Of a stretch of DNA of 64,000 nucleotides, positions 6,223 to 59,173 are shown in pieces (within the stretch, counting starts at the first letter, position 1; each line of letters opens with the position of its first letter). The position numbers and the translations under genes are program-made. Source of the DNA: Loxodes magnus. Its lineage: Eukaryota > Ciliophora > Karyorelictea > Loxodida > Loxodidae. Below the pieces are notes generated by a model. The model was not told where the DNA came from, searched no databases, and saw only the letters and a list, made by a program, of their open reading frames with translations. The stretch covers positions 372,001-436,000 of the forward strand of contig CAMPDV010000114.1 in assembly GCA_946699065.1 (NCBI GenBank), written 5' to 3'.

Positions 6223-7874
6223 TCATTTAGGATCTTGCTAAGCAATTACTGTTGAATTATCTTGCTAAGCAATTACTGTTGAATTATCTTGCTAAGCAAT
6301 TACTGTTGAATTATCTTGCTAAGCAATTACTGTTGAATTATCTTGCTAAGCAATTACTGTTGAATTATCTTGCTAAGCAATTACTGTTGAATTATCTTGC
6401 TAAGCAATTACTGTTGAATTATCTTGCTAAGCAATTACTGTTGAATTATCTTGCTAAGCAATTACCGTTGAATTATCTTGCTTATCTAACGAGTTATTTT
6501 CAATATCTTTTTAAACATTACTGTTGGTGTTTTCATTTTCAAAGAGGACTACATTTGGTTATACTTATACTTGTGAATTTTCTGCATTTAATTACTAATT
6601 AACAACTGTTATCGTGATTTCTGACTTGTCATTTGCCTATTAAATACTTTTGATTTGGTTTTAAGAATCAACTGCTTGAGTTTGATACTCAAAGTTATTT
6701 TTTTCCTGCTAGTTAATCTAATTTTCAATCTCTTAACATTACATCTATATACTTTGCTAATTTATGTTTTCAGGCTGAGATTCTGGCTCTTTTAAAGTTT
6801 AAATTTATTGAAATTTCTAATTTTCTTCTTTCTTCCTTAACCAAAGTTCTTATATATCATTTAACTATATCTTTGTTTCATTTTACTGCGCATCGGTTTC
6901 AAAGACAACTACAATCAACTACTCTACAACTTACTTAATTTCCGCTTTCTAAAGTAAAATAAGATACCTTTAACTACAGATTTTAAATGCTTTGATCATT
7001 TTAACTGATTTCATTTACTTTAACTAGAATTTATTACCCAATTTCCGGTTTAAATTATAAGATCTCTTGCTAAGCCACTTAGGAAAATCCACTACTTTCA
7101 TTTTAAGTTTCTTCCTTTTTATTCATAATATTCTCCTACTCATTAAGCTTTCCTGAATAGCAAATTACTTTTTTTTAACTGCATGTTATTCTTCTTTTTG
7201 CCAAAAGGCTTTATCTTCCACTATGCTTTTTTAGCTGCAAATTCCTATGCTGGTGATTTTATATTTATCTAAATGACTTCTTATTTCCCCTAGGTATTTT
7301 CTTGATTATCTTGCTTATTTTGCTAATCGAACTTAGATCGTGTTCCTTAATAGCTAGATGCAACGATATGCTTAGAAGCATCTATTTATTCAATATCTAT
7401 AAGATTTACATAGGTGTTAGAATCAGTTGAATTTCCATCCTCTTGTTAGTTGATTTGCTTTAGTATTTAGAATGGTCTTTTAATATTTTGCTCTTTATGC
7501 TGATTTTTCATGCTTGAAGGTTATTTTTATATCAATGAATTATCAGAACTTTCATCGCTAGAACTGCTTGAAGTATCTTAAATGCTGTCTTCTCTCTCTC
7601 TTTTGCAGGATGCTATAATTTTACCAGTGCTATGCACTTGAATCACATCTTAAGGAAAAATTACATTCTTTAAGTTTTCGCAAGGTGGAAGAGTATAATC
7701 CTCTAAAGTAAGATAAACTCCAGATTTAAGTCCAAATGAAGAAGTAATATGATGACACAAATCGCTCACTCTTTTCATAGCAACTGATACAGCAACTCAT
7801 GATCTCTATAAATGGGGCTCGACTAAACCAACTTCAAATTCTAGCTTGATTCTATTTAAATTAGCTTAGGCCAT
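6223..7874 (-). CDS. COIL: Coilin homologue (Cajal-body scaffold)
   Basis: Coilin organises Cajal bodies and snRNP/snoRNP maturation in the nucleus. The ATG at 7874 opens MAQANLNRIKLEFEVG, and residues 8-90 match the ubiquitin-like coilin N-domain: hydrophobic beta strands, then FGLKSGVYLTLEDYTLPPCE, the counterpart of the FGF-SSGAFLGL...LPPAES region. Residue 26, the conserved Trp of strand 2, is TGA (7797-7799). An acidic Ser run (SSSSSDESSDN) and a basic KKKNN stretch follow. A Tudor-like module comes next (FKPEIGQQILVKVNEI ... VVVFETDAQQNETKIQL), as at coilin C-termini. Two 16-nt GT...AG introns (7153-7168 and 6919-6934) join the three frames; without them each module breaks. The tail is nine copies of QDNSTVIAQ, then TGA at 6223-6225. 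Spliced length is 540 codons. The call is strong because both ends of the protein match the family in order. Confidence 0.85.
6234..6476 (-). repeat. 27-bp tandem repeat, nine units, coding
   Basis: Nine head-to-tail units of 27 bp (plus-strand unit begins cttgctaagcaattactg). Eight are identical; the unit furthest 5' in the gene (6450-6476) has one base change (acc for act). They encode a nonapeptide QDNSTVIAQ at the C-terminus of the coilin homologue and end two codons before its stop. Near-perfect identity suggests recent expansion, and copy number is probably variable. A standard-code frame on the opposite strand is a by-product of the 27-nt period. Confidence 0.95.
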
Positions 7875-11275: not shown

Positions 11276-12300
11276 TCACAAATTTTCACAATGGGGAGAT
11301 CTCCTGATTTTTACTTTTTCCTTGGATAAGTAAACTTAAGGAAGTTTATCACATCTTACAAATTTCCACTATAGAGTATCTCATACTTAATTGTTCTTAT
11401 ACCACTTTCTATCTTAATCACTAAATCTTCATTCTTTATTATATCTAAATCATAAACTTACAATTCCTCAGCAGCTAATGCTTGAAGCTAGTCTTTGGGA
11501 AAGAAGTAAAATATGTATAAAAGAGTTTCTTCGTTAAATTTCTAAAAGTGGCTGTTTCTTAAGCTTGGCTTTAGTTAAGCATAGCAAGAAGGTAACATAA
11601 GGTTGGGCAATTCAGATATAGAGCTTTGCTATTACGTTTGAGGGGTTATTAGATTACTTGAAATTAAACCTTTTGATTTTTTGTCCATGTTGCGTAAATC
11701 CAATGACTATAATAGTTCTCTTTCTTCCTCACTCTACTTTACAAGACCTTAAACTCCAAATTACTATTTTTCCTTTTCAGTGTTAAAAGTATTATGATGT
11801 ACCTGAATCTAAATAAGATCTCCATCTTTAGAACTGTTAATATTAGACCTTGGAACGAATTCAGGAATATTTTTAATCTTAACCTAATTTTAAGATTTAA
11901 TCTAATTTTATTTAGCAAAAGATTTAAAAGGTTCCTAAGGAACGTAGGCATTAGCCTTAGGATTAGGAGTATATTTAAAAGTAGTTTATTAAGGTCTAAA
12001 ATTTTAAGAAATGCCGTATTAAATATTACAGTCTGTAGGAGGGATGCTCATTATTATCTAGGGATCTTCCATATATCCATAAGATTCTTCATATGGTATT
12101 GTCTTGAACATTCCTTCTATTTACTTAATAAACTTAGCAGGAGTTTTAGTAGATGCTTATGTCATGTTTGGGTAAAATGCAGGAATTTGTGCAGGGAACA
12201 TTTCTGGGTTAATGAATGGATCTTGTCTTAGCATATCGTTTTCTATAGTTTCATTCATTCCACTTGAAAAATTCTATTAGTAGTTTTATTAAGGAATCAT
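11276..12300 (-). CDS. CNOT2: CCR4-NOT subunit 2 (NOT2) homologue
   Basis: NOT2 is a core CCR4-NOT subunit (mRNA deadenylation, transcription). ATG at 12300 begins MIPQQNYQQNFSSG; the first ~215 residues are a low-complexity Pro/Gln/Asn linker. The C-terminal NOT box follows: ELPNLMLPSCYAQLKPSLRN, then FNEETLLYIFYFFPKDQ and LQALAAEELYNKEWRFSDQD. This aligns with the vertebrate pattern LLFYLYY...LQLLAAVELFNRDWRYHKEERVW. The exons are joined through a 17-nt intron (11445-11461) placed exactly inside LAAEEL|YNKEW; unspliced, the box is lost. The conserved Trp of (D/E)WR is TGA (11429-11431); other Trps use TGG. The TGA stop is at 11276-11278. Length is 335 residues, shorter than human CNOT2 (540) because the N-terminal region is reduced. 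A NOT3/5 identity is possible, but the WRY-type motif favours NOT2. Confidence 0.85.
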
Positions 12301-14155: not shown

Positions 14156-17100
14156 TCAAGGTTTTAGTATTTTTTTTGTTTTTAGATCAATTGTATTATT
14201 TTAGGATTTTGGGTTTATTTCTTGAGTTGTCTTCTTTTCGATAAAATTAGCTTCAAAAGGACTCTATGATCTATCATGTGGTTGCTAAATTTTCGAAGAA
14301 CTTTTTTGTAATAAATAATCTTTATTTTCTTGTTTTTCCTACTACTGAACTTGTGGTTATTGCTATTGTAAAGCCTAAAAATCCTTCACTTTAGAAAGAG
14401 AAGAGGTACGTCGAAGGACAGATACTTCAAGTCCCATCTGCTTTTTCTAAAAGTCCTTACTCTGTTTGATATATTCTAAGCAAGATTCATCTTCAGGAGA
14501 AGTAAAAAAAGGACATTCTTCAGGTCATAAGTACTTAAGTTTAAATTTTAAATTGGTAGCTTAAAGAAGTCAAGGCATTATATTTTCTATCTTTTTGCTT
14601 AAGTGGAATTAAGAACTATCTTCGTCTATATCCGCAATTGTTTCAGCTCTAAACAAATCTCCTCTTTTTCCATTTAAACCTAAAAAAATGCGAGTCTTCT
14701 TATTGCAAATGTGAGCAATTCTTGCAATTGCCTCAATAAACTCATAGAAATTCATTTATTTGAATCTTTCATATTTTATAGTATCTATTTATGTCATCAT
14801 TGATAGGTTAAAACAAATGGGTATATCGCGAACTGGAAGATTTTGATCTACTAAACTTGCCTGCATAATCAATTTTTCAAACTCATCCAAACTCATAAAT
14901 CTATAGATATATAAGAACTAAGTACCTTTTCTAACCAGGCAAAGCTTATGCTCCTGAGTATTTCCTGTAAAGGGCTTTTAAAATTAGCAAATATCTTCTA
15001 AGAACTATGTCACATTACTAGTTAAGGTAAAACTCATCACGCCAACCTTGCCCTATTTTTTTAAAGCCTTGTAGTTAACTCTATAAAAAGTCAAAAATTC
15101 TAGCTACTGCTCTTGAAGGCTCATAATCTACAATATGAAAACTTACTTCTATATTTATCCAGAGAAATTTTGACTAAGCAGTTAATAAATTAAAACCTAA
15201 CTAACAAGTTCTGAGGGATTAAATTAGGCAAGTAGCTTAGATCTTATTTAATTACGTTTGATTCAATGTACTTCAAATCAACATCTTTCAACTTGTATAC
15301 CTCATCTACTATGTTACCATTAGACATAAAGATTTCAAATTAGTTCTTACCTACACTAAACCCATTTCCTGCTGACAGTACAGAATAAGCATTTTTTAGT
15401 GCTTCGTAGTTCTCAAGCAAAATGTCAAATATCTTTTACTATTAATCTTCAGGCTTTATAAACTTAAGATTCTAGGAATTTCAATCATAAATGAAGCATT
15501 ACTGCAATAGCTCCTTATTATCAAATTTGTAGTTTTTAAAAATAGACTTTTCAATAGCCCATTCTTCTGTTTCTTCTGGAAGTTAATACTCTCGAACGGT
15601 AGATCTTGGCTATACACTTGGAGGATTTTCCATGTTTATTTTTTTTAAGTTTTATCTATTATCTAAGACATTCATTTCAAATATTTCAACTTTAAGGTTT
15701 TGCTGTAGAATTGGAAAATCGAAATACCCTTAAAAATAGGAGTTAATCACTTATCTATCCTCAGCTACCATTGCTAGTCCATCTGTACTAAAGAAGTATT
15801 TGTGAGTACCTGGAGGAATTGCTCTTTTAATTTAAAAATTTCCATCTGAAACACATTCCATTAGCATTGGATAATAATCATCAATACTTAAATGAATAAA
15901 CAGAGGACGCTATTTGAAATTTGGTCCACTTACACCTCCTGTTCAAGTTATTTAAAATTCGCTTCATTCTTCACAAAGTCAGCAATGATCTTCTCAAAAC
16001 TCTGAAATTTTTCGTTATGATTTTCTAGACAATATTCTAGGACTCAAATGGCTAGAGATTGGTCTTGATTTTCCTGCATGAAGATTTCCAGCTGCATCCA
16101 TTACTCCTGCATTTCCTGTAACATGAAGTCCTAGCAAATTATTATTTAGATGTAGTTGCTTAGATATAATTTCAATTTCTGCTTCTGAAATGATATTGTG
16201 AGATATATCCAAATGCACTATTTTTTAGTTCTCCTTTATAAAGTTTCCTATTGCTTTTGCTGTCAAATAGTTAGGATCATTTCCTTCACCCAAATTATTT
16301 CAGCTTACATCTAGTTAAAGCAACGAATCGTTTTGTTCTAATCCTTAAAACAGTTTAATAGCGGGAGTTCCTCTAATTCTATTTCAATGTAGGTCTAATT
16401 TAGTGAGAGTGTTATTATACATTAAGTATTATCCAAGTTAAGTTGCTGATTTATAAATTTCATTCTTCGCTAAGCTTAGTTCGCTCAAAGTATTGTTTTT
16501 TTACATAGATTCAATAAGAAGGTATGCTAATCTGTCTGTCATTTGGACTTCTTCTAGAATTAAAATTTGTAACTGGCAAGTTGGCTCGATTAGAATAGAG
16601 TTTAGTATATTGATGCTTTTCAAGCCTATTTAATTTCCTGTAATGTCAACCTAACTAACATCTTTTAATCTTTTCAATAAAGAGGCTGTTCCCTTATCAC
16701 TTAGTCTATTGTTTTAGGCAAACAAATTGTTTACTTAATCTATTCTTTTCAAACCTTTTGATAGTGCCTTAGCGTAATCATCTCCTATTTTATAGTTGGC
16801 AATATTAATATCAATAGGATTTCCAGCTCTTTTAGCAATTCCTATTGGTTAAGGAGTAAGTCTGAGTTCCTGGCATTTTTACAAATAGGCGATATGAGCA
16901 GAATGATCATATAGGTTAAACTTATTTCTTTCTACAAGCTTCTAAAGTTCACGGTAGGAATCATAATACTATTACATTGACTATACTCCACAAAAAGAAA
17001 TATCCTCGTATTCACTTCCTCTGTATTTAGCTGTATAAGTTTAGCTGTCGCTTTCTAATAATTTAATTCTTGAGCTCTATTGAAACTTTTAAAGTCTGTT

Positions 17101-17524
17101 AAATTTTCTTGGAGTTTTATTTAAAGGTCGATCAGTAGTAGGTGCGGAAGGATAATATCGATAAGGAGAAGCTTCTGTAGTTGTATCTTCCTTCGTATAT
17201 CTTGTAAACTAACTCGTTTTTCATTATGTGATAAAGTGTTTGATCGGTCTATATTTAAAAGGAATGAATTTTTTTTAATCCTAATGCATTTTACTACTAT
17301 TATAATTAAAAAAAATAAGAGCAATGCAGTTACAAGCCTGTCTAAATTACTTTAATCCAGCTCATACAATAAGCCCTTGGTTAAAATTTCCTGTACTCAT
17401 ACTTAAAGGATATGCGTATGTGAGTTCATTTAAATATATATCTCTATCTAATAAGCTTTGGCTTGATTCTTAAAATGTACTTAAGTTTAACTTACCAGTC
17501 CTTAGTTAATTTTGTTACACTCAT
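14156..17524 (-). CDS. Large LRR protein with EF-hand-like C-terminal region
   Basis: ATG at 17524; 1102 residues after removal of introns 17480-17495 (16 nt), 15128-15146 (19 nt) and 14901-14925 (25 nt), each of which restores frame. The order is an N-terminal region; ribonuclease-inhibitor type leucine-rich repeats, about residues 215-470 (LSELSLAKNEIY, LTKLDLHWNRI, LLQLDVSWNNLG, IVHLDISHNII); a DHCWLCEEWSEF motif near 508; a beta-rich segment (IKRAIPPGTHKYFFSTDG) resembling a glycogen-binding-like fold; and an EF-hand-like module from about residue 863 (FMSLDEFEKLIMQASLV, FNLSMMTQI, MNFYEFIEAIARIA). The same module order recurs in ciliate and algal LRR proteins as I remember them. The LRR Trps are TGA (16384-16386, 16300-16302). 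It ends TGATGA (14153-14158). The cellular role is unknown; flagellar or cytoskeletal scaffold is a guess. Confidence 0.85.
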
Positions 17525-26801: not shown

Positions 26802-29179
26802 ATACAAAATAGCATCTTAAATAGACAAAAGATTTATAATATAGATATTAAATAACTATTTTTTAAAAGCTCTTCATTAAAATTATTATAATAGATACCT
26901 ATTACAATTAACAAATAAATAGAAAACTATTAATGAGTCATTATATTAGAAAAAGATAAATAGTAGCTTATTAAAAGAGTAATAAGCATTAGTTTTGCTA
27001 TAGGAAGCTAATTCATTCGTCATTTAAGTTTAAAAAGGAATAGAAGTTAATTTAAATATTAAATATATTTAAAGTAAGCAAGTACCTCAATAAATAGCTA
27101 TCATTTCAAATTACAAGTTTTGATTTAGAACCTTTATGGAGGGCAAAATACTTATCTGATATATTTTTTAGTTAATAGAGGAAATAAATTACCTCCTATG
27201 TTACTTAGTAGGATAAAATAATATAGAAAGAATTGGTATTAAGAACTGAAAAAAAAGAATTATAGTGTAGATTTTTAAATGGTGACGATAATAGGAATAT
27301 TAAAGCTTAAAAGATTATATTAACTAAATTAAAGTATTTATCATTTAATAAAATCCACATTAGCAATATGTAAGAGATATTTAATAGAAGAAGAAGCTAG
27401 ACTAATAGGCATTTATCTCTTTTTGGGGACTATTTTAAATAATTAAAGAGAGCTCAATAACAAATTATTTAATCAATTTCATGCAAAGGTAATTATGTAA
27501 GGTTAAATTTTTCGCTCTTATAAAGAAGCTATTAAATAATAAGAAAGGTATTAAAAAAGAGTACTTTGAAACTAAACTTAAATTCCTTTAAAAAGATTTA
27601 ATTTCTTTGGCAATGAAGGTCATGAAAATTAACTAAGCTGAGCTCATTCTTCGCTATTTATAACTAAATAAATTCTTTAAATAAGATAAATTTTAAGTAG
27701 ATAGTCAATATGATTTTAGCCTAAAAAATAAAACTTTACACTTAAACAAGAGCAATAATCTAATTTGGCAAACTTTGCAATAGATTATATTATTCGCAAA
27801 GTCATTAAGAAAGAATCATCTTAATTATCCCAAAAAATATTTGATAATAAAATCATAAAAGCCCTTAATTAATAAATGAGGCAAAACTAAGCACTAAGCA
27901 ATATCTTCTTCATCAAATTAAAAAACTACTTATAAAGTCTAAAAATAATTGCATATATGACTCTTATAGCAAACCTCTAACAATTACTTGACTAACGATA
28001 ATAATTTCATAGATATATGTCCTTGATATATCAAGCTACCACTTAGCAATAGCTTAACATTAAGCTTATAATATGATCTCCATGTAAAATAATATTTATA
28101 ATACTACTAAAATTTTTAATTTCTTTGTCACTTTTAGCTTTTAAAAGCAAATCCTAGGGTATTTTCATATGCCTATATAGTTTTACATACACCTATTCAT
28201 AACTTCTTAGTTTGCTATAATAAAAAATCAGAATAATAAGTAAAATATTTAGCATTATTATTCAAAGTATCTAGTATATATCTATTAAATTATACTCAAA
28301 AGCTGCTTTTTCTTGAAATTTTAACTAACTCACTGTGATAAACTAGAGAAGTCTGAAGAATATAACTTCGAATTATGATGATTAAAGCGATGGAAAATCT
28401 ATAGCTTAATTAAAAGAAAATCTTAAGGACTTAATTTAAGAAAATAGTAGGAGAATAAGCTTCTTATGCCTATATAATATAGATAGCTTGCCTCTTTATA
28501 TTAGAATAATAAAGCTTTATTTTAAATTAATATCTATCTAATTTTACTCACTAGAAATAACCTAAAAGTTAGGAATTCTTGCTATATAATTAATAAGGAA
28601 AATCAAGTTATTTTAAATAAGCTTAGCTAAGGAGTTAAATTTAATGGTAATATTAAGGTGAAGATATATTAACAATAGAAGCTAGAATAGTAAATATTTA
28701 TATAGGTTGGATAATGTAAGGATGTTATTAAGAAGGTAATAGGTAGTTAGAGAAGCAAGGATAAATAAAAATTAAATGTTAATTAATGGTAGCCAATTAA
28801 ATAAATAGTATTCAGTATCTCTTATGAGGGGCAATTCTTTCCTAATATTAGTCATACTAATTTAGTAACATTTTATAAGGCTATTAAGATTTGGCCTTTT
28901 AACAATAGTAAATGTCGTAGGGTAAATATATTAGTTAATTAAATATGATGCTAGAAGTTAGTTTTATATATGGATAGTAATTAAGTGAGGTTATGTAATA
29001 ACATACAAGAAGAAATGCTAGTAATGAATAAGGGAAGGTGAAGTATGTGTTAATTTTCCTAACGAAGAGTGAAGATTGAAGGAGTAACATGAAGAATATT
29101 ATTAGAGGATATTTTCTATTTAAACTAATTAGTTTTAATAAATATTAAAAAACCGATGAATTATTAAACTCAATAAGGT
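26802..29179. other. Long spacer with possible coding remnants
   Basis: About 2.4 kb. The plus strand at roughly 27080-27760 and 28400-29140 is somewhat richer in G than other spacer and gives short protein-like stretches (RYLIEEEARLIGIYLFLG; RRNASNEQGKVKYVLIF), but no start, stop or family. These may be remnants of genes or long 5' leader sequence of the kinase gene. No repeat or RNA gene seen. Confidence 0.3.
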
Positions 29180-30874
29180 ATGGAAATCTTGAAAACATTG
29201 GGGGTACAAATCTACAGTTGGGATCAGATTTTTGAAAACATTACAAGTGAAATATCAGTGAGCACTTTCTGCAAATTGTATAGAGCAAACCTAAACAACT
29301 AAGAAGTTGCTATTAAAGTGCTTGACTAAAGACTTTTCACTGATAAAGAATAAGGCTAAAAATGCTTTATTGAAAAGGCTCTTATAGCAGCTTAAAATTT
29401 CGGATAAAACGTGCTAAGTTTACGTGGAATAAGTTGTGATAAATATTTATGCCTTGTTTACGATATAATGAATACGAATTTGGCGTAGTCATTGCAAAGT
29501 CTTTCTGCAACTGAAAAATTCCACATAGTATATGATGTTGCATGCGGTATGCACGAACTATAGACAAGAAATATAAGCCATCTATTGCTTAACATTAACA
29601 ATGTCCTGCTTGATAATAGAAATAGAGCTTTAATTTCAGATTTCATGACTACATAAATTAAACCTCTAAGTAAAGAAGATTATATTTAAAGAGGAACTAA
29701 CACTCTTTAATACCTACCTCCTGAGGCTCTTACTACGGGAGAAACTTCAGGATGGGATGCTTGGTCTTTTGGATGCATTGTAATACATATGTACAGTGGA
29801 TCTAAACCTTGGCCTAACTATAAGCAAAAAGAATTAATTGATTCCCTAACTTAAGGTTAAGCTCCTTAAATTCCGATAAGTATGCCAGAGCAGCTTAAAG
29901 CACTATTACAATAATGCTTTAGCGAGCCATCTAAGAGGCCTGCATTCTCATAAATAAAAGAAATAACCTATAATCTTTTGGATTATTAAAGTAATTAAGC
30001 AGCTTAAATTAAATTATCATAGGAATCAGTTACATCAGTAGATTGTAATTTCTTGTCTGACTAGATAGATATTCAAAGATGGAAGGAACTAAACAGAACT
30101 ATTTACCATCTCTTGATTCAAAGCAAAAAAGACTAGATTAAAATTCAAAAAGATCTTCAAAAAGCCTAATAAACGATAAAATAGTAAAGTGATATAATAG
30201 AACAGCAGCATGCCTTGGTTTGCTTTTTATAATAGCAAGTAATGGATTTCCAACTAGGAGCTTAGGTACCATCGCAGCCAACGTAAATAGAAAAAGCTGA
30301 AGAAAATTTGACTAACGGGAAAGTAGAAGAAATAGAAATTCCAAAAGCAGAAGAAAGTCCCATACAATAATTTACAAAAGCATTCAGTACTTAGAATAAG
30401 TCTCCTAATGTTAAATTAGTTAACAATGATTTACGAGCCATGTTTCCTGGTGATTAGGAGAATTTGTGTCTTATTGGAATTCCACTTACTCCTGGCTTAC
30501 TTGTCTCAATTTTATTCATTATGGTTGATGGATATGGATTTGACTTTGGAATTTGCGAAGTTTAGCAAAATTATGAAGTACTTTTACGAGATGTTGGATA
30601 TGCTTTTTACAATGGAGGCAATCCAGCATATCTTTATAAAAATGGCAAAGAAATAGGAAGATATGGAAAGGAATCATGAAGACAAGGAGACGTCGAAATG
30701 ATCATAAACACTAAAGAAGGAACTATTTCGTTTGCCATTAATGGATAGCCATATGGAACAGCCTTCTAGCAAATTGATTTTTCAAAAAACTACTTCCCAG
30801 CCATTTCTAGCTCAGGAATGATTTCTTATCGCATATTAGAGATAGAAAAGTGCGAAATTACACAATTGAGTTGA
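29180..30874 (+). CDS. Protein pseudokinase-SPRY fusion
   Basis: ATG at 29180 (MEILKTLGVQIYSWDQIFE) to TGA at 30872-30874, 564 residues, no intron. Residues about 10-275 form a kinase-like domain: NNQEVAIKVLD keeps the ATP-site Lys, and TNTLQYLPPEAL and GWDAWSFGCIVIHMYSG are the P+1 and F-helix motifs. The catalytic loop is ISHLLLNINNVLLD, so HRD has become HLL and the catalytic Asp is gone. DFG is DFM, and the Gly-rich loop is poor. It should therefore be a pseudokinase. A coiled coil follows (SKKDQIKIQKDLQKAQQTI), then an acidic linker and a C-terminal SPRY domain, about residues 415-560 (YEVLLRDVGYAFYNGG, YLYKNGKEIGRYGKES, GDVEMIINTKEGTISFAING). Codon 500 (30677-30679) is TGA at the Trp position just before RQGDV. 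A signalling scaffold is likely. Confidence 0.85.
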
Positions 30875-39005: not shown

Positions 39006-39782
39006 TCATGTTTAGTTAGCTTCTTCATCTGAATCAGGTTCATTTGCCATTCTTTCTAGCTTCTATAAGAATTCCTAGTCATTATCCTGCAATGCTTTCT
39101 ATACTTTCTCCTATAGCAACTTTATTTTATCGTTTATTTTCATATCCACATCTGATTCTTCTGTTTTAGCTGTAACCTCTTACTTTTCAGAAACTTCAGA
39201 AGGAGCTTGATCTATCTGTACTGGCAAGTAAGATTGAAGTAAATCACCAAACTGTAAAGGATCAACAATTTAGCCCTCTTTTATTTGAAATATGCTAGGT
39301 AACTGAACTTTGTGAAAAGGCTCATATGTAATTAGCTTAACATCAATAATAGGAGCAAAAGTGAGTACATATAGAGAATAGTGTCTATAATATCCGCTCA
39401 GACAGAACTCTTAAATAAGCTTCACATCTCGTTCATTAAAAATTTCGATTTTCTTAGGAGGTCTTTATATAGAATGGATATGGAGAATCTCCTTTAAAAG
39501 TTGGAAAGAATCGTTAAGGTTCATATTATTCTGTATGGACTAATTAAAAATATGATTCAAGATACCTAAGCATGTTGAAGTCTTCTCATAGGAAAAGTTA
39601 CACTTCTAGGTAAATTCATAGATGTTAAAGTAGAAATCCATTAGTATTTCTTGCTTCTCTTAGTCCTTTACATTTTTAATGAAAATCTCTTTAAGCAATG
39701 CTCTTACTTCTGGAGATTTAGAGTTCAAAAGCACTTATGTCTGTTTTTTAGTAACAGGATTAAAAGTGAAAAAGCTTGACAT
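39006..39782 (-). CDS. CLAMP-domain ciliary protein (CFAP119/C1a-32 type)
   Basis: ATG at 39782 (MSSFFTFNPVTKKQTQVLLN) to TGA at 39006-39008, 258 residues, no intron and no Trp codon of any kind. Residues about 20-165 match the flagellar C1a-32/CCDC189 family: EILMDFYFNIYEFTQKCNFS, then TSTCLGILNHIFNQSI, FQLLKEILHIHSIQRPPKKI, IFNERDVKLIQEFCLSGYYR and HYSLYVLTFAP. The strongest signature is the run around HSIQRPP...FN followed by Y(F/Y)RH(F/Y)xLY. These proteins sit in the C1a/C1d central-pair projection and help control ciliary beating. An acidic, helical tail (KLLQEKVQKALQDNDQEFL) ends DSDEEANQT. I am confident of the family and less so of which paralogue. Confidence 0.82.
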
Positions 39783-41166: not shown

Positions 41167-41605
41167 ATGCAAAAAAGCTTTAACGAAAACTTACAACTTC
41201 CTAGTTGTGTCTGCTGTAAGAAATTCTTTGGAAACCCTGAAACTGCTAATATGTGCTCTGTATGTTATAAGAAAAATTAACTTCAAGATAATAATGAAAC
41301 TAACAAGTCTGTTCCTGCTACTATTTAGCCTACTTTACAGATTCAAGAGGAATCTAAGAATGATATCAAGGAAAAAGAAGTCGTAAAGGTAATTTTATTT
41401 ATAATAGAGTGATCCAACTCGTTGTAAGGAATGCAGTAGAAAAGTGGGATATACTGGGATAAAATGCAGGTGTGGGGAAACTTTCTGCACTAAGCATAGA
41501 TTTTCAGAAGACCACAATTGCAAATTTAATTACTAAGAAATGCAAAAAGAAAAGTTAGCCAAAGAAAATAAAGTGATAAAATAGAAATTAGATAGATTTA
41601 ACTGA
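41167..41605 (+). CDS. A20/AN1 zinc-finger protein (ZFAND5/6, SAP family)
   Basis: ATG at 41167 (MQKSFNENLQLPSC) to TGA at 41603-41605, 139 residues after a 19-nt intron (41389-41407) between the two fingers. The N-terminal A20 finger reads CVCCKKFFGNPETANMCSVC (the family form is CGFFGNPxTxNxCSxCY). A 40-residue linker (SVPATIQPTLQIQEESKN) follows. The AN1 finger has all eight ligands: RCKECSRKVGYTGIKCRCG, then ETFCTKHRFSEDHNCKF. Length and layout match the ZFAND5/6 and plant SAP stress proteins, which bind ubiquitin chains and the proteasome. It ends with a short basic helix. This is one of the clearest calls in the window and it anchors the reading of TAA as Gln and of tiny introns. Confidence 0.93.
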
Positions 41606-42288: not shown

Positions 42289-42966
42289 TCAGTGATGAAA
42301 TCTATACTTCATGCATTTGCAAGGCTTTCTGTATCCCTTTTTTGAATTTTTAAAACCAGTTCCATTGCATTTGTAGCATTTTCCTGCCCATTAAGCACAT
42401 GGCTTGCATATTTTTCCTGGTTTTTTTAATTTGTAGCCGGTACCTCCGCATTTGAAGCATCCAGGACGACCTCTAACGACTCCCATTGGTGCAACTCCTG
42501 GATATGCAACAGGATAGGCAACTGGTACTTGTTGTTGTACAACAATTGGAGGGCCGGTTGGATATCCAGCAGGATAAGCAGTTGGTGGATATGCTTAAGC
42601 TGGTGGATAACCAATTTAAGTAGGAGGATAAGTAGGTGGAGGATAAGGACCCGTCATGCTACCTGCTGGAGGATAACCTGCAGGTGGAGGTTAATAACCT
42701 GGAGGAAGTTATTACATTGGAGGAGCTGCATATCCTGTTGGAGGATATCCTCCAGGAGGTGGGTATTATGTTGGAGGAGGAGTAGGGCCTGTCTATATAT
42801 AGATCGTTTAACCTTAGGGTGCTTGAGGTGGAGCTGATGGAGGATATCCTCCTGGTGGAGGATAGCCACCTTGTGGAGGATAGCCACCTTGTGGAGGATA
42901 GCCACCTTGTGGAGGATAGCCACCTGGTGGAGGATAGCCACCTGGTGGAGGATATTATTGAGCCAT
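42289..42966 (-). CDS. YPPxGG-repeat protein with zinc-ribbon tail
   Basis: ATG at 42966 (MAQQYPPPGGYPPPGGYPPQ) to TGA at 42289-42291, 225 residues, no intron. The first ~45 residues are YPP(P/Q)GG hexapeptides; degenerate PPxGY units continue to about residue 150 (PPGYQPPPAGYPPAG, PTAYPAGYPTGPP). The C-terminus has two CxxCxGxG-like knuckles, CFKCGGTGYK and CYKCNGTGFK, plus CKPC and CKCMK pairs. This is the ligand pattern of a DnaJ-type zinc ribbon. XYPPX-repeat proteins of this build are found with annexins, rhodopsins and shisa-like proteins and tend to phase-separate or bind membranes. Standard-code frames on both strands here are shadows of the repeats. Confidence 0.85.
42836..42961 (-). 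repeat. 18-bp tandem repeat, about seven units, coding
   Basis: Head-to-tail 18-bp units (plus-strand form ggtggaggatagccacct) with small base differences between units. They encode the hexapeptide YPP(P/Q)GG at the N-terminus of the zinc-ribbon protein. The middle three differ by a single base (tgtgg for ggtgg) that switches the Pro of the hexapeptide to Gln. Confidence 0.9.
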
Positions 42967-44038: not shown

Positions 44039-45020
44039 TCAATTACTTTTTCTGCACAAGCTAATTTTCTTGGTTTTCTTCTAAGACAGAATTAGATTAA
44101 TTTTCATTCTGTTGATTCTGAATTACCAAACTTACTTAATTTAATTGCACCCAATCGAAAACGAAATCGTATTGATAATTAAGACTAAAAAGTAGCTCTT
44201 TGAACATTATTTTTAGATATGTATAATCAGGTTTTTCTTCAAATTTTAAGTTTTTACAGTAGTTGATATATATCTAAAATTACTAAGGCAGATCTTAGCA
44301 AAGTTCTTATGATGAAGTTTCCATTTTTTTGTTTTTTATCTTTTCATATTTTTCTGACTTTGTGTTAGCATTAAGAATTTATCAAGGAAGTTATCCTTTT
44401 ATGAAATAAATTAGAACATATCCTATACCTTCTAAATCATCTCTTCTAGATTGTTCTATACCCAAATGTGTATTCACGCTAGTGTAACGAGCAGTTCCTG
44501 CTAAGCTTTTTCCCTCTTTGTATGGAATATGTAGCTATGTTTTTGAGTCAATGTATTTTCTGGTCAGACCAAAATCTATCACATGTACTAAATGAGCTTT
44601 CTTTCCTAAACCAATAAGAAAATTATCAGGTTTAATATCCCTATGAATATATTCCTTATCATGCATATATTCAATACGAGATATCATTTGGTTAGCAAGC
44701 ATAAGTGTAGTTTTAAGTGAAAACTTTTTTTTAGATTAATTAAATAAATCTTCTAAAGAAGGACCTAATAAATCAATAGCCATTACATTATGTTCTCCTT
44801 CTTTTCCATACCAATACACTTAAGGAATTCCTACTCCTCCTTTGAAAGCTCTGTATATCTTTCACTCATATTCAAGTTAAGGAATCTTATTTCTAATAGA
44901 TTCTAGTTTAATAGCTACTTTTTAATTCGTTTAAACGTTTATTCCTAAATGAATTTCTCCGAAAGATCCACTTCCTATTTTTTCCTTGAGTTTATAAGTA
45001 CCTCCTAAAATAATTTCCAT
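44039..45020 (-). CDS. Casein kinase 1
   Basis: ATG at 45020 ([20 protein letters not shown]). The full CK1 kinase domain is present: the Gly loop [70 protein letters not shown], the catalytic loop [24 protein letters not shown], the CK1-specific [20 protein letters not shown], and finally [13 protein letters not shown] and YDFVFDW. Catalytic residues are all kept, so it should be active. The invariant Trp of LPWQ is TGA (44382-44384), and a second TGA (44862-44864) reads as Trp in LEYEWKIYRAF; two other Trps use TGG. The C-terminus beyond FDW is unresolved: no in-frame TGA follows soon, so a last small intron is likely. The 3' limit given is one such option. Confidence 0.92.
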
Positions 45021-47170: not shown

Positions 47171-48073
47171 TGTAAATAAGTGGGTTGATGCAGGTTCGTC
47201 GTCACTTTCTGATGTGTTAAACGCTTCATTAAACTTAATTTTTTTGATCTATTACGAGTTATCAGAAGATTCGGAGTCTATAGATTATTTGCGTTTCTTA
47301 AGCGTATTAAAATCGATAAATTCCTCTTCTTCATATATTTAAAACGATGTTTGAATTTAATTTTGTTTCTTACGCTATTTTTTCTTTTTTTTCTCTTTGT
47401 GTCTATTTTTTGAGTGACCGAACTCTCTTATCTAATTCTCAGAATTTTTTTCTTAAGGTTTTTAGTTTTCTGTACTTATAAAGCTTTTTTTTAATGGCTA
47501 AATATAAATATTTTATTCTTAGGGCTTTTCTTTTTCACTAATTATGTCTTTGAAAGTAGGATCCTTGCTTTGGTTTACGTTTTTATCCTTAGTCTTAAAA
47601 TCTAAATTCAGCTATAAATTAAGCTTCTTCTACTCTTTATTTTCATTTGTGACTACGTTCTAAGCTCCATTGACTGTAAGTTATTTCTTCTTATTCTCAG
47701 CATTATCAATCTGTACATCAGCTATTTCTTTTTACATCTAATTATTTTCCTATTTTATAACTTAATCTTACTGCTAGTTATCTAAATCTATAATCTCTTT
47801 GATAGAATTATTATGCTTAAGTACTGCTAGAACTTAATCTAGATCTCTAAAACAGTCGTTAACGAATAGTCTGTCATCTAAGAAGCAGCTTTAGAACTTT
47901 AGCTTAGCTATTGATACTTGTTTCTTGAGAATATGTTGGTAGGTGGTTTAAATCAAAGGTATTAATTCAGATACTGTTAGCAGTTTATCAGGAGCAATGA
48001 GAATACGGTTGTTATCCACTTGAACAACAAGTCTAAGCTTATCAGTGGATTATAATCTATTAAGCAAATCCAT
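47171..48073 (-). CDS. Unknown, possibly nuclear protein with ubiquitin-like N-terminus
   Basis: ATG at 48073 (MDLLNRLQSTDKLRLVVQVD). Residues about 10-90 look like a small beta-grasp fold: KLRLVVQVDNNRILIAPDK, LLTVSELIPLIQTTYQHI, then SIAKLKFQSCFLDDRLFVND and DLDQVLAVL. The alternation of strand, helix, strand and a final L/V strand recalls ubiquitin-like domains, including the coilin N-domain, but no residue proves kinship. A long charged linker follows with a lysine block (RHKEKKKKKQRKKQ), then acidic IYEEEEFIDFNT and an ending SDSESSD-like and SESDDEPAS. The alternation of basic and acidic tracts is typical of nuclear or nucleolar proteins. No TGA or TGG occurs in about 300 codons, and no TGA follows the natural-looking end at THLFTQ, so the stop is unresolved. 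Confidence 0.65.
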
Positions 48074-53418: not shown

Positions 53419-56400
53419 TCATTTTTTATTTTCAAAAATATTGGTGAAGTCAACTTTTACCGGATTTGAAGAAAAATAATCTTTATTCTTCCAATCACTC
53501 TTTAGTTTCTCTTATGTTATTTCTTCTTTCTAAAAGCTTTAGCAAATATCCTAATTTTCCTCTTCTTCATATTCTTAAATTGTTATCAGATTTTTCTTAC
53601 TCTTCAAACTAGAATTTTAAAGGCTTTAAGATTAAATATGCCTGCTTTATCAAAACTAATTGGGATCATCTTCTTCAGTTGAAGCTTTTCTGTATTTAAA
53701 GCGTTTTTATGCTTATTCTTAATTGGTATTCCTTCTACTTTCATTTACTCTTCTTCATTTAATTAAGTTTAAGACTATTACTAGAAAAAGCTATTTTCTT
53801 ATTTATTTTTATCATTTACTTCTACTTCTTAAGTTATATTTTAGTACGTAGATTTAAGATTAATTTCATATTAGCTTTCGTACAAATTTAATATAGCTTG
53901 AAAATTCTAGTATTCTTAAAAGAAAGTTTTTATACGTTAATTTCAGTAGTCCTTTCATGACTAACGAAAACTTCAGCAGTTAAAGATATAAAGATCTTTC
54001 ATGCTCATATTATATAGCAGAGATATTTCTAATTACTAAAGCAAAGGTATTGTTTATTGATTTTCAAAGCGTTGATAAAGTTTTTTGTTGTGCTTATTTT
54101 CTAAGGATAATTAGATAAATTTTTCTTCTTCAAAGTTTGAATCACTTACGATGCTTTTATTAAAAATTTAATTCTTTTTGGTTTAAATTTTTTGAACTAG
54201 ACTCTTCTTTTTCTATAATTAAGTTTCTTAATCCTTTTCCATTTAAATAATAGTCTCAAGTAATTAAATCTTCTTATTAGAAAGGCATAAATTAAGCAGT
54301 TTCTAAACAGTTTTGTTTTATACTGAGTATCCTATCTCAAGTATAATTTGTCTAAATCAAAATATAAAGAATTAACCATTTGCTATCACAAGTAATATGT
54401 AAAGGCTTAAATCTATAAAGAGTCATCTATCTCCAGAATTAAAATAGATTCCAATGTATAGGATGAAAGAGGAAATAAGTAAATAATTTGCTTCTAGTAA
54501 GTTCAAATCTTTCTTTATATAAGGCATAAATTTAATTTAGCAAGACACACATATTATCATTATCAAAATAAGACACCAACATTAAAAAATTAGCGAATTG
54601 TTCTAAAAAAATACTAGAACACATGAAATCACTTGCTTCTGCTACATCTTAAAGAGCTCTCAATAAAAGAATTTATCTTAATATCCATTTGTTAAAAAGC
54701 CTAGCTTGGATTTAACTTTATAGCTTTAAATAATTCTTCTATTCTTATAGAGATACAAAAATACTAAGAAAGGAATAAAAGCTCCATAAATTATGAAAGC
54801 TGGTAAAGATAAAACTAAAATGAACTGCTTATGAGATCCTTATCAGCATTTTATATCAGTATAAGAATTCAATACGTAGGTATTTTCTGATATATAGTGG
54901 CAACTTAAGGAGTTAAAAATAGTTTGAATCAAGTTAGTATAAGATTGAAAGAATGAGATGGTCATTATACTAGCTGCAACTGATTAGTTAAAAGATTTTT
55001 GTCTTATTTAAGATCATAAAAATAATACCAAAAAGGTAACTATTCAAATAACAAAAGGAAGAGCCATACTTCTGGATACTTTATTGTAATATAATTATTC
55101 TCCTTCTTCATTTAAAACGCAATCAAATTTCAAAGAATTGGAAGTTGCTGCCATATATCCTTAGTTTAACTTGAAAAATTCTGAAATGTTTTTCGTCCAA
55201 TCGAATTTAAAATTTTTAAAAAGCATGGAGTATTAAATATGGTTAGTTAGTATTTTGAAATAAGCACCTAAATAAGAGCTTTTTGATTATTTTAAAGTTT
55301 TTTTGACTAGGAACAATATATAGGCAATAAAAGCAATTGAGGTAAAAAAGGCTACTAAAAGTGAAAATTTTTTACTTTAGCATTTTACACATTTATTGAA
55401 ATCATCTTTTGATCAATTTTATTCGCAAACATCACATAAAACTCCTTTATATCCTTTTTTACATTTTCCATTCCAATTTATTTCATTTAACAAATCTTCT
55501 CTCTCTTTTTCGTTAGAATTCGCAAAATATATTTCAAGTCAGGTCTTATTTGCATAGGTACCTAAACATGCTTCTGAGGTGGGACACTCGTGAATAATAT
55601 CTGAGCTTAAAGATTCCCTTCAGTAACCTTAATCTGGAGCTATTAAATTACCACCATAACATCTCGCTCCTTACATGCAATCGTTGCAAAATTTATCATT
55701 TTTGTCCAACGAATATTATCCATAAAAACAGTTTTGACATAAATTACTGTCTATGAGGATTTATCCTTCTAAACATGGTTAAATAGTGAGTTCTATTTAC
55801 ATAGTATTAGTCATATTTTGGTCATAAAATAGATTGTCTTGGTCTATTGCATTTGACTCTAACTATACATGAACTAAGTCTCCAGGTATGGCTTTGATGA
55901 TGATATCTTAAATATCAAAAGTTCCTTGATCAGCTTAGAATCTTGTTTTTCCTGCTAGTTGAGCATCATCTGAGAAAACTTGAATAATAGAAGTAGAATC
56001 ACTTTTTACAACCTATCCATATATATCAACTATTTAAATTTGGAACTAGGAAACTGGAAAACCTGGAACATTAGTAAGGCATTTTCTTCTAGTAATATTT
56101 TCGTAGCAGTGAGATAGAACATCGGTAATTGAGCTGTTACTATATTTATAACCAAACGAAGCTAAATTACTTCCATAATAAGCTTCATTATTCTAAAACA
56201 AAGAACAAATTTCTTTACTTCAAACATCAGGAATTAGAGTAATCAATGATCCCTAAAATGAAATAGCTCCTCCTTCACTTATTTCAGTCATTATTTAGTT
56301 GTTTATAAAATAGTTATTTTCAACTAAATATTCGCAAATCAAATCTTTATCACACATAAGTCTTAAAGCTCCCCCTTTTGAAACATACTATTAATTACCT

Positions 56401-59173
56401 TCTATTTTATTATTTTCAAATCTGTTTTCTTCAAATCTTATCTTAGCATTTTAGCAGTAACCAACTCCTCCATTTTCTTAAGCAACACAATTTTCGAATA
56501 TGTTTCCTATAAAAACATTCTCTTTCTCAGTCTTTTTGTTTATTATACCAAAGCATCCACCTGATAAAGCTTACATCTCTGAACATACACAGTTCATCAT
56601 CCTCATCTAAGAGTTAAGGGAATATATTGCAGATCCATAAAAATCTAGACTAACTCCTTTTGTAAAGTTTGAGAAACTTATATTTAAAGAGCTTGCATCT
56701 TGAGAAATAGCAGTATTTAAGTATTCACTAAAAGAGCAATTTTCAGTCACCATTTCAGAACTTTTGAGGTAAACTATAGATCCTTAAAATTAATTGGAGA
56801 TAATCCTATTAAAATTAGAATTATGGATTTTTACTTAAGAAGAGAGTGCTTAAATTACACTTCCTTATTAGCTTACCAAATTTACAAACTATACTTCATT
56901 TAAAGCCAATTCAGACTAAATTAAATGAATAGAGCCTCCTTACTCTCATTCTCCATTTTCAAAGATAGAGTTATTTATCTCAATTTTACCTTGGAAATCA
57001 CTTAGAATAAATAATCCTTCTTTCATACTTTAGTTTTAAAATACTGAGAATTAAATTTTAACTTCTGAGTCTCTTATTAGAAAACCTGAAGTAAGTGCTT
57101 TAGCTTTATTGTTGGTACTAATTACTCCATTCAGAATTAATTTACTTTTATAAACTGAAAATGTTGAAATATAAGCTTCATTATCAAATATCTCTACATT
57201 CTATAATTCACTTGTCTCCTATAGGAATGAAGTCTATAAATAGATGGCACCGGTTGATATTGCAGTATTATTGAAAATCTTGCAGTTTTCTATTATAAAC
57301 TAAGAGTCCTAAACGTATATAAATGATCCTTCACTTGCAGTGTTTTCACTGAAATTACTATATTTTGCTATTAATATGCTAGAAGTATCCGAAAAGCTCA
57401 CTCCTCCCTTACTAGATGCTTCACCTTATTTGCATACTACTTAAAAGGTATTTAGTACAGAAAATTTTAAATGGAAAATACCTCCTTCTGTAGCGTTACT
57501 GTTTATAAAGGTTGAATTTACTATGTTTATTTCAGATAACTCTGCCTTAAGAATTCCACCATAAATGGCTGAACTATCTCTAACTTCTATAGACTAAATT
57601 TCAACGATGGTTTTTAGAAAGATGAGAGTGCCTCCATTAGCAGCAGCTCGATTATTAATAAAAGTGCAATTCTAGATTATCATTATATCTTCATCTGAAC
57701 TCTTAATTTAATCATATAAACGTATAGCTCCTCCATCTGTAGAGTTATTATCACTAAAGAAGCAATTCTTCATCAAATAAACAATTGACTATTCTTGTAT
57801 ATTTACAGCTCCCCCATTTATAGCATTATTTTCTATGAATATGGAATCTTCTATTGAATTTACGTAAGATTAAGATGTTATATAAATTGCTCCTCCCTTC
57901 CATTATCCATCGTTTTGGATAAATGTCAAGTTGTATAAATTATTTACAATGGAGTACTCAAATCAAATAACTGCTCCACTAATAAAGTTTTTATTAGAAA
58001 TGAAAATAGAGTTTGAAATTTATATAGCAGTTGCTTGGTAATAAGAGATTGAATTAATGTAATCAGCTTCATTTTCTTCGAAGATGCAGTTATCAATTAA
58101 AAATACTATATCTATAACAAAGTCGAATGTTCCAGCCACACTACCTTTATTTTTTATAAATGTACAAAATTGAATTGTAAAATTAGAATCTCCTAAAGAT
58201 TCTAAAACTCCCCCCATCATATAGCTGAATTGTTAAAAAAGGTAGAATCTCTAAAATATAAATCTGAGCTAATTACGATGAATGCTCCTCCTTTATCATC
58301 TGCATGATTGGATATATATTTAGAATTTTAAATGATCAAAGTTGATCTCTCACTCTGGATGCAGCTTGCTTAAAATGCGGAGTTATAAAGAAACTATGAT
58401 TAGGTCATGAATAAAATGCTTTCTATGATATAAAAAACTGTTCCTGTATTTCCAACAAAGAAGGAGTTTATAATATCAATAGTAGCATCTTACACAATTA
58501 TCGCACTTTATGAGGTAACAATATTCATTAAGGTAAAGTTAGTAAAACTAGCTTCTCCATAGTTAACTGATAAGAAATTTTAAGACCCTAAAATAAAATT
58601 TTGTATTGTTACTTCATAAAAGTCTAGCAAAGCTCTTTCAGCTTTAATGAATACGTTAGAGGTACATTCGTTTTAATAACAGTCTTGATACAGGCTTTAT
58701 CCACTAATGGTTAGGTGTTTTAACATAAGAGAGTCTCGACTTAAACTTAGCAGTAAATTTGGATTATTTACAAATAAGATTGCTTAGTTTTCAGAGTCTC
58801 AGCACATTGCTCTATACTACTGATTATTTAAGCAATCAAATGATTATATTTTTATTTTCATAGGATTTTTATTCTAATTATTCGCTCTTAAAATCTCACA
58901 GACATCACAATCATTGCAAACGTCTTCTGCCAGGCATTCTAAGGTGTGATTATGTGGAGATACTCAAATATAAGTTTCTGATCCATCAGGTAAATTGAAC
59001 AGAGTTTAAGATAGTGAAGTAAAAGGGTTATTTATTTATCCATCTGGATGAATCAATCCTAGATAGCTAGAAACTTCAGGTGTGGTAACATAGAAATTAA
59101 TGGCTTCGCTTGAAAATTTTTGGATAAATGATAGAAGTAAACATAACTAAAAGACTAACTTAGTTTGCCTCAT
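53419..59173 (-). CDS. Giant surface beta-helix protein with C-terminal membrane domain
   Basis: ATG at 59173 starts a signal peptide (MRQTKLVFQLCLLLSFIQKF). Residues about 30-1090 are imperfect right-handed beta-helix repeats: polymorphic-membrane-protein-like rungs with GGA/GGxI turns and NxxF/NNxA ladders (KGGAFIVISSDLYFRDSTFF, NGGAVNIQEQSIVYLMKN, GGAIRLYD). A Cys-rich stalk follows (CLEGQILIDSNLCQNCFYGQ, CYGGNLIAPDQGYWRESLSS, CPTSEACLG, GYKGVLCDVCE), then several membrane segments with the family motif LGFLTNGY...FFYWELFK, and an acidic cytoplasmic tail (EYEEEENQDICQSFQKEE). The Trps of GYWR (55620-55622) and FYWE (54660-54662) are TGA. The stop is TGA at 53419-53421. A small intron of about 17 nt near 53730 is inferred from a frame change. 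Another shift near 58210-58245 is not explained by a GT...AG intron. Large ciliate surface or receptor-like proteins of this build are common; the ligand is unknown. Confidence 0.82.

What the first reader, a model, noticed from the sequence alone, without database searches (positions are those of the whole stretch)
44382..44384. UGA encodes the invariant Trp of casein kinase 1 (LPWQ)
The CK1 kinase is intact and colinear with its family over almost 300 residues, and the Trp of the near-universal LPWQ motif is TGA in frame. A stop here would remove the last third of the domain, yet the sequence after it ([15 protein letters not shown]) is also conserved. Read together with TAA/TAG as Gln, all three canonical stops have sense meanings in one gene.
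Basis: partly seen in the sequence, partly recalled or inferred. Interest (0 to 1): 0.9.

Follow-up and report, generated by a model that had tools for sequence, protein, structure and literature searches.

The report
Stop codon UGA read as tryptophan
In this piece of a ciliate-like nuclear genome the codon UGA, normally a stop signal, most likely spells the amino acid tryptophan inside genes such as casein kinase 1 and still ends other genes, an unusual but already described genetic code.

Summary
A casein kinase 1 gene on the minus strand (ATG 45018-45020) aligns gap-free to known CK1s over 294 codons, and the Trp of LPWQ is TGA (44382-44384). The next codon, its Gln, is TAA: two canonical stops in a row spell WQ. 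A second in-frame TGA (codon 53) lies where relatives have Ser. The kinase is not alone: TGA stands at the conserved Trp of a CNOT2-like protein (after a 17-nt intron) and probably at a Trp of a SPRY domain; Trp gave the best Pfam score of the residues tried. TGA also ends genes: an A20/AN1 (ZFAND5-like) gene stops at TGA two residues past its relative's aligned end, with a TAG read as Gln seven codons earlier. UGA = Trp or stop by context, UAR = Gln and introns of 17 and 19 nt match the published karyorelict code (NCBI table 27; Loxodes). Open: CK1 and one other gene have no in-frame TGA near their apparent ends, so UAA as an extra stop is not excluded (a test showed no clear excess), and predicted genes show no depletion of TGA before the stop. 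The organism cannot be named here.

The parts
44139..45020 (-). casein kinase 1 catalytic domain, 294 codons, with 13 TAA/TAG and two TGA in frame
44382..44384 (-). TGA at the Trp of LPWQ (codon 213)
44379..44381 (-). TAA directly after it, at the Gln of LPWQ
44862..44864 (-). second in-frame TGA of the kinase (codon 53); relatives have Ser here
29156..30874 (+). protein kinase plus SPRY gene (start uncertain), read through TGA 30677-30679, ending at TGA 30872-30874
30677..30679 (+). TGA inside the SPRY domain; lies on a Trp of a ryanodine receptor SPRY domain in an alignment that is not significant on its own; Trp best of 7 residues in Pfam score
11380..12480 (-). CNOT2/NOT2-like gene (3' end not determined)
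11445..11461 (-). 17-nt GT-AG intron inferred from a frame shift; after removal the Pfam NOT match runs to profile position 87 instead of 71
11429..11431 (-). TGA at the conserved Trp of the NOT domain
15223..17166 (-). leucine-rich repeat protein frame, 648 codons with 7 TGA and 1 TGG
16384..16386 (-). TGA in a leucine-rich repeat; Trp in one (9fqr_Km) of the 4 chains printed
16300..16302 (-). TGA in the next repeat; no Trp in the 4 chains printed
55620..55622 (-). TGA in GY-TGA-R of a Cys-rich repeat protein; no relative aligned
41167..41605 (+). A20/AN1 zinc-finger gene (ZFAND5-like), 19-nt intron 41389-41407, ending at TGA 41603-41605
39006..39782 (-). CFAP119/FAP119 (CLAMP) gene ending at TGA 39006-39008

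Best explanation
The window is nuclear DNA of a ciliate, most likely a karyorelict (Loxodes-like), that uses the ambiguous code NCBI table 27: UAA and UAG are Gln; UGA is Trp inside the coding sequence and the stop codon near the mRNA 3' end. In the kinase the ribosome reads UGA-UAA as Trp-Gln and makes a full-length CK1. Shown here: TGA at conserved Trp sites within intact domains, TGA at a homology-supported gene end, UAR within intact frames, introns of 17 and 19 nt. Inferred from published work: sense reading is the default, and the release factor wins over the tRNA only near the 3' end of the transcript.
For: Gap-free CK1 over 294 codons with TGA at the Trp and TAA at the Gln of LPWQ, both residues present in the 4 alignments printed. 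CNOT2-like: the TGA aligns to Trp in 5 of 5 alignments printed; Pfam 62.0 bits with Trp against 57.8 (Ser) and 57.4 (Arg), both TGAs of the fragment changed together. SPRY: Trp gives the best of 7 residues tried, 38.2 bits against 37.3 (Tyr) down to 35.1 (Gly). Usage: 20 TGA to 12 TGG in 3573 codons of eight gene segments, 12 to 10 in 2275 codons without the Cys-rich gene that has no aligned relative. Stop meaning: the 139-residue A20/AN1 protein has residue 137 aligned to 212 of 213 of ZFAND5 and is followed by TGA; CFAP119 ends at TGA 13 residues past the last aligned residue of 9ijj, 317 of 333. TGA is second best of 64 single-stop models; beside TAA it scores 1641 against at most 1627 for 8 other partners, and is again the best at a second setting. 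Loxodes magnus: table 27, introns mode 17 nt, 93% at most 25 nt (PMC11441545, section 9 read).
Against: Codon 53 of the kinase is TGA where relatives have Ser. Of 7 TGA sites that could be aligned, 4 fall on a Trp (chance 0.002 under random nonsense change), but the SPRY alignment is not significant on its own and the LRR site has Trp in only 1 of 4 chains; 3 of 7 would be 0.02, 2 of 7 would be 0.14. The three TAG codons of CK1 align to His, Thr or Ser, and Ala, none to Gln. The A share of TGR (0.62) is the lowest of 15 NNA/NNG pairs, so some avoidance of TGA is possible. Predicted genes show no depletion of TGA before the stop, unlike Loxodes: 5 of 560 codons against 104 of 12767 overall, though many predicted ends are uncertain. 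No in-frame TGA lies near the apparent ends of CK1 and of the gene at 47180-48073. GAA, not TGA, came first in the single-stop scan. No RNA, protein, tRNA or genome data were at hand.
Confidence: 0.92

Rival explanations
1. Condylostoma-type code (NCBI table 28): all three stops are both sense and, near the 3' end, stop; UGA = Trp holds, but UAA and UAG also terminate.
For: The gene at 47180-48073 loses its coding signal three codons before an in-frame TAA, and the next TGA in any frame is 152 nt further on. CK1 has no in-frame TGA between codon 213 and codon 428. Adding TAA to TGA as a stop raises the model score by 13.4 or 17.0 at two settings. No depletion of TGA before predicted stops.
Against: Unrelated codons gain as much: TAA is 8th of 63 at one setting and 5th at the other. 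The ends of the three domain-bearing genes examined (A20/AN1, CFAP119, kinase-SPRY) are TGA. Introns of 17 and 19 nt do not fit the 15-16 nt given for heterotrichs (PMC11441545).
Confidence: 0.07
2. The kinase is a decaying copy in a genome where UGA is only a stop, so the two TGAs are nonsense mutations (Ser to TGA and Trp to TGA).
For: Codon 53 aligns to Ser; TGG and TCA are one change from TGA.
Against: No gap or frameshift in 294 codons; 177 of 293 identical to 3sv0; TGG at the other two aligned Trp sites. TGA also lies inside CNOT2, SPRY and LRR frames, with Trp favoured in the two score tests.
Confidence: 0.02
3. RNA editing or programmed readthrough of a dedicated stop at a few sites.
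For: DNA alone cannot exclude editing.
Against: 20 TGA to 12 TGG in the eight segments (12 to 10 in the stricter set) is too common for site-specific editing or readthrough (inference). In C. magnum UGA is translated directly, by mass spectrometry and ribosome profiling (PMC4967479, passages).
Confidence: 0.01

Closest known systems
Karyorelict code, NCBI table 27 (Loxodes, Parduczia)
   Same: UAR = Gln; UGA = Trp inside genes and stop at ends; introns of 17 and 19 nt as in Loxodes magnus (PMC11441545, section 9 read).
   Different: TGA is 20 of 3573 codons (0.56%) in the eight segments, above the 0.120% given for Parduczia (PMC4967479, passages); no Loxodes value was found in the passages seen. 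No depletion of TGA before predicted stops. UAA not excluded as a stop.
Condylostoma code, NCBI table 28
   Same: All three stops have a sense meaning in one gene.
   Different: UAA/UAG termination not shown here; introns longer than the 15-16 nt given for heterotrichs; UGA in C. magnum 0.042% of codons (PMC4967479, passages).
Amoebophrya sp. ex Karlodinium veneficum (syndinean) and Plagiopyla frontata (ciliate)
   Same: UAR = Gln and UGA = Trp; UGA appears to be the sole stop in Amoebophrya and may be a stop in P. frontata (PMC6394959 and PMC10553269, passages).
   Different: UGG strongly favoured over UGA in 14 Amoebophrya dynein alignments, and internal UGA in 3 of 240 P. frontata proteins; here TGA is about as common as TGG or commoner.
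Casein kinase 1 family (delta, epsilon, plant type)
   Same: Complete catalytic domain, gap-free.
   Different: TGA at two codons; C-terminal end not determined.

Membership tests
Karyorelict code (NCBI table 27) | UAA and UAG encode Gln | tested here: met
   13 UAR codons in the gap-free CK1 domain; against 3sv0 3 lie on Gln and 3 on Glu, all six TAA, while the 3 TAG lie on His, Thr, Ala; 206 TAR to 80 CAR in 3573 codons
Karyorelict code (NCBI table 27) | UGA encodes Trp within genes | tested here: met
   CK1 codon 213 and CNOT2-like site on Trp, SPRY site probably; Trp best in the two Pfam score tests; 3 of 7 aligned sites not on Trp
Karyorelict code (NCBI table 27) | UGA is also the stop | tested here: met
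   A20/AN1 gene end against ZFAND5; CFAP119 end against 9ijj
Karyorelict code (NCBI table 27) | UAA and UAG are not stops | tested here: inconclusive
   TAA as second stop ranks 8th and 5th of 63 at two settings; two gene ends unexplained
Karyorelict code (NCBI table 27) | coding UGA and UAA depleted just before the stop | tested here: inconclusive
   not seen in 28 predicted genes (TGA 5 of 560 against 104 of 12767, TAA 30 of 560 against 662 of 12767), whose ends are partly uncertain; at the 3 domain-bearing ends 0 TGA, 1 TAA and 2 TAG in 60 codons
Loxodes-like karyorelict | introns mostly 16-25 nt, mode 17 | tested here: met
   two frame- and homology-supported introns, 17 and 19 nt; the gene finder's other introns are unproven
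Loxodes-like karyorelict | rRNA or protein phylogeny | not testable with these tools
   no Rfam match or tRNA in the window; no genome for the window; the collections scanned for CK1 gave no ciliate relative
Condylostoma code (NCBI table 28) | UAA and UAG also terminate | tested here: inconclusive
Casein kinase 1 | full catalytic domain gap-free with CK1, including LPWQ and the KPDY and FDW motifs | tested here: met

The most novel reading that the evidence does not exclude
A genome with Loxodes-sized introns in which UGA has become a main Trp codon while remaining a stop, and in which UAA too may serve as a stop at some genes (CK1, the 47-48 kb gene): all three codons ambiguous, as described for Condylostoma magnum, but with UGA used as Trp about 13 times more often (0.56% against 0.042% of codons).
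Probability: 0.07. Interest if true: 0.6.

Novelty: already known. Interest (0 to 1): 0.2.

Why it matters
It shows from one locus how a canonical stop can be an ordinary amino-acid codon in the body of genes and a stop at their ends; gene callers with a standard or Tetrahymena-type code would cut CK1 and CNOT2 here. It also gives a quantitative point to check against Loxodes: TGA makes up 20 of 32 TGR codons (12 of 22 in the stricter set), not significantly below the A share of TAR, TTR or AAR but below that of GAR and lowest of the 15 pairs counted.

Tried and rejected
A codon scan seeded from the kinase alone collapsed onto a Gly/Pro repeat; replaced by a composition-based scan and a small gene finder. 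Searches used a wrong frame for the SPRY region and are void; repeated in frame. An excess of GTA..TAG stretches 22 nt long (59 against a mean of 36.5 over 28 lengths) was looked at as an intron signature; at least one lies in plain coding sequence (44786, in CK1), the best-supported introns are 17 and 19 nt, so it was dropped. Searches for CK1 relatives in viral contigs (12 pattern matches, none a relative) and in prokaryote genomes (117 pattern matches, one distant Myxococcales kinase at 24% identity) gave nothing useful. TAA as a second stop: no more than controls (8th and 5th of 63 at two settings). Intron options for the CK1 tail: 4 stretches of 16-23 nt bring a TGA into frame, none compelling. 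No tRNA and no Rfam match in the window, so the UCA tRNA question could not be tested. Seah et al. 2022 (karyorelict code) is not held and Heaphy et al. 2016 is not held; neither was read.

Full report
Observation. The kinase lies on the minus strand. Its frame opens at ATG 45018-45020 and, with TAA/TAG read as Gln and TGA as Trp, gives a CK1 domain (Pfam Pkinase E 2.1e-26). Against PDB chains, residues 2-294 align to 3sv0 (E 4.2e-126) and 1-297 to human CK1 delta without gaps. Codon 213, at 44382-44384, is TGA and falls on the W of LPWQ in all four alignments printed; codon 214 is TAA and falls on the Q. Codon 53 is a second TGA, where those four alignments have Ser. The two TGG codons fall on Trp in both relatives compared. 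Of 13 UAR codons in the domain, 3 lie on Gln and 3 on Glu in 3sv0, all TAA; the three TAG lie on His, Thr and Ala.

Is it one damaged gene? A look at the window's coding-like stretches and Pfam scans of most of them gave other genes with known domains: a kinase-SPRY gene, CFAP119/CLAMP, an A20 zinc finger, a NOT2-type protein and an LRR protein. In the kinase-SPRY gene a TGA at 30677-30679 lies inside the SPRY domain. Of seven residues tried there, Trp gave the best Pfam score (38.2 bits; Tyr 37.3; the rest 36.4 to 35.1), and an alignment that is not significant on its own puts it on a Trp of a ryanodine-receptor SPRY domain. In the NOT2-like gene a frame shift is resolved by a 17-nt GT-AG intron, 11461..11445: the Pfam match goes from 41.7 bits in the unspliced 1000-residue frame (profile positions 3-71) to 62.0 bits in a spliced 109-residue fragment (positions 18-87). 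The TGA just after it aligns to Trp in five of five printed CNOT2/CNOT3 alignments, and Ser or Arg lower the score by about 4 bits (both TGAs of that fragment were changed together). In the LRR gene one of two TGAs in repeats aligns to Trp in one of four chains printed (9fqr_Km); the other in none. Counting all seven aligned TGA sites (CK1 53 and 213, two in the NOT2 fragment, SPRY, two in the LRR), four fall on a Trp and three do not (Ser in CK1; Pro in CNOT3 for the second NOT2 site; various in the LRR). The chance of four of seven under random nonsense change is 0.002 (with 9.4% for hitting a Trp codon); if the two weaker sites are not counted, two of seven is 0.14. So the case rests on the two firm sites, the two score tests and the intact frames together, not on that count alone.

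Usage. In eight gene segments (3573 codons) there are 20 TGA and 12 TGG; without the Cys-rich repeat gene, which has no aligned relative, 12 and 10 in 2275 codons; in CK1, kinase-SPRY and CNOT2 alone 5 and 9. The A share of 0.62 does not differ from TAR (0.67), TTR (0.67) or AAR (0.72) by Fisher test, but differs from GAR (0.81, p 0.02) and is the lowest of the 15 pairs counted. UGA is thus a common Trp codon here, with room for some avoidance.

Is TGA also the stop? The A20/AN1 gene (41167-41605, with a 19-nt intron at 41389-41407) gives a 139-residue protein whose residue 137 aligns to residue 212 of the 213-residue ZFAND5, and TGA follows residue 139. Seven codons before this stop a TAG is read as Gln. 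CFAP119 ends at TGA, 13 residues past the last residue aligned to 9ijj (317 of 333; its other match, 7n6g, ends earlier), and the kinase-SPRY gene at TGA followed by AT-rich DNA. A gene-finder scan in which each of the 64 codons was tried as the only stop ranked TGA second, after GAA, so the scan alone is weak. With TAA as one stop, TGA was the best partner of nine tried, at both settings. TAA as an extra stop gained no more than control codons did (8th of 63 at one setting, 5th at the other). Against the simple picture, CK1 has no in-frame TGA between codons 213 and 428, and the gene at 47180-48073 loses its coding signal just before a TAA with the next TGA in any frame 152 nt on. Small introns could bring a TGA into frame in CK1, but none is compelling. 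In 28 predicted genes TGA is not depleted in the last 20 codons (5 of 560 against 104 of 12767), whereas Loxodes shows such depletion; predicted ends are partly uncertain, and the three domain-bearing ends have no TGA in 60 codons. This point stays open.

What it is. UAR = Gln, UGA = Trp or stop by position, and introns of 17 and 19 nt fit the karyorelict code described for Parduczia (PMC4967479, passages seen) and for Loxodes magnus, where introns have mode 17 nt and UGA is the only stop (PMC11441545, section 9 and passages seen). Heterotrichs, to which Condylostoma belongs (recalled), are given there as having 15-16 nt introns. Another paper lists UGA as the stop and UAR as Gln in Loxodes (PMC6935857, passages). 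Plagiopyla and one Amoebophrya share the sense meanings (PMC10553269, PMC6394959, passages), with rarer UGA. The organism itself cannot be named: no genome is held, and no tRNA or Rfam match lies in the window. That it is a ciliate is inferred from the code, the introns and the A+T-rich composition.

Verdict. The phenomenon has been in print since 2016 (PMC4967479) and for a whole Loxodes genome since 2024 (PMC11441545). What is left of interest is the high share of UGA among Trp codons and the two gene ends without a nearby in-frame TGA.

Noticed in passing
47180-48073 (-): Gene frame without a Pfam match (coilin-like by eye only) whose coding signal fades three codons before an in-frame TAA; the next TGA in any frame is 152 nt downstream.
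   Followed up: partly
44109-44150 (-): CK1 tail: the in-frame reading runs on into Q/N/E-rich sequence past a GTAAGT..CAG stretch of 18 nt (44135-44118); other small introns of 16-23 nt would give TGA ends.
   Followed up: partly
6232-6482 (-): 27-bp tandem repeat, 9.3 copies at 99% match, coding for a nine-residue repeat (QDNSTVIAQ) at the C-terminus of a predicted gene that ends at TGA 6223.
   Followed up: no
42434-42958 (+): Gly/Pro-rich open frame with an 18-bp tandem repeat (42834-42954, 6.7 copies), between the A20/AN1 gene and CK1.
   Followed up: no
55251-59173 (-): Long Cys-rich repeat protein with 8 TGA and 2 TGG in frame, continuing into a hydrophobic (probably membrane) stretch; DUF7630 match below its cut-off.
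   Followed up: partly
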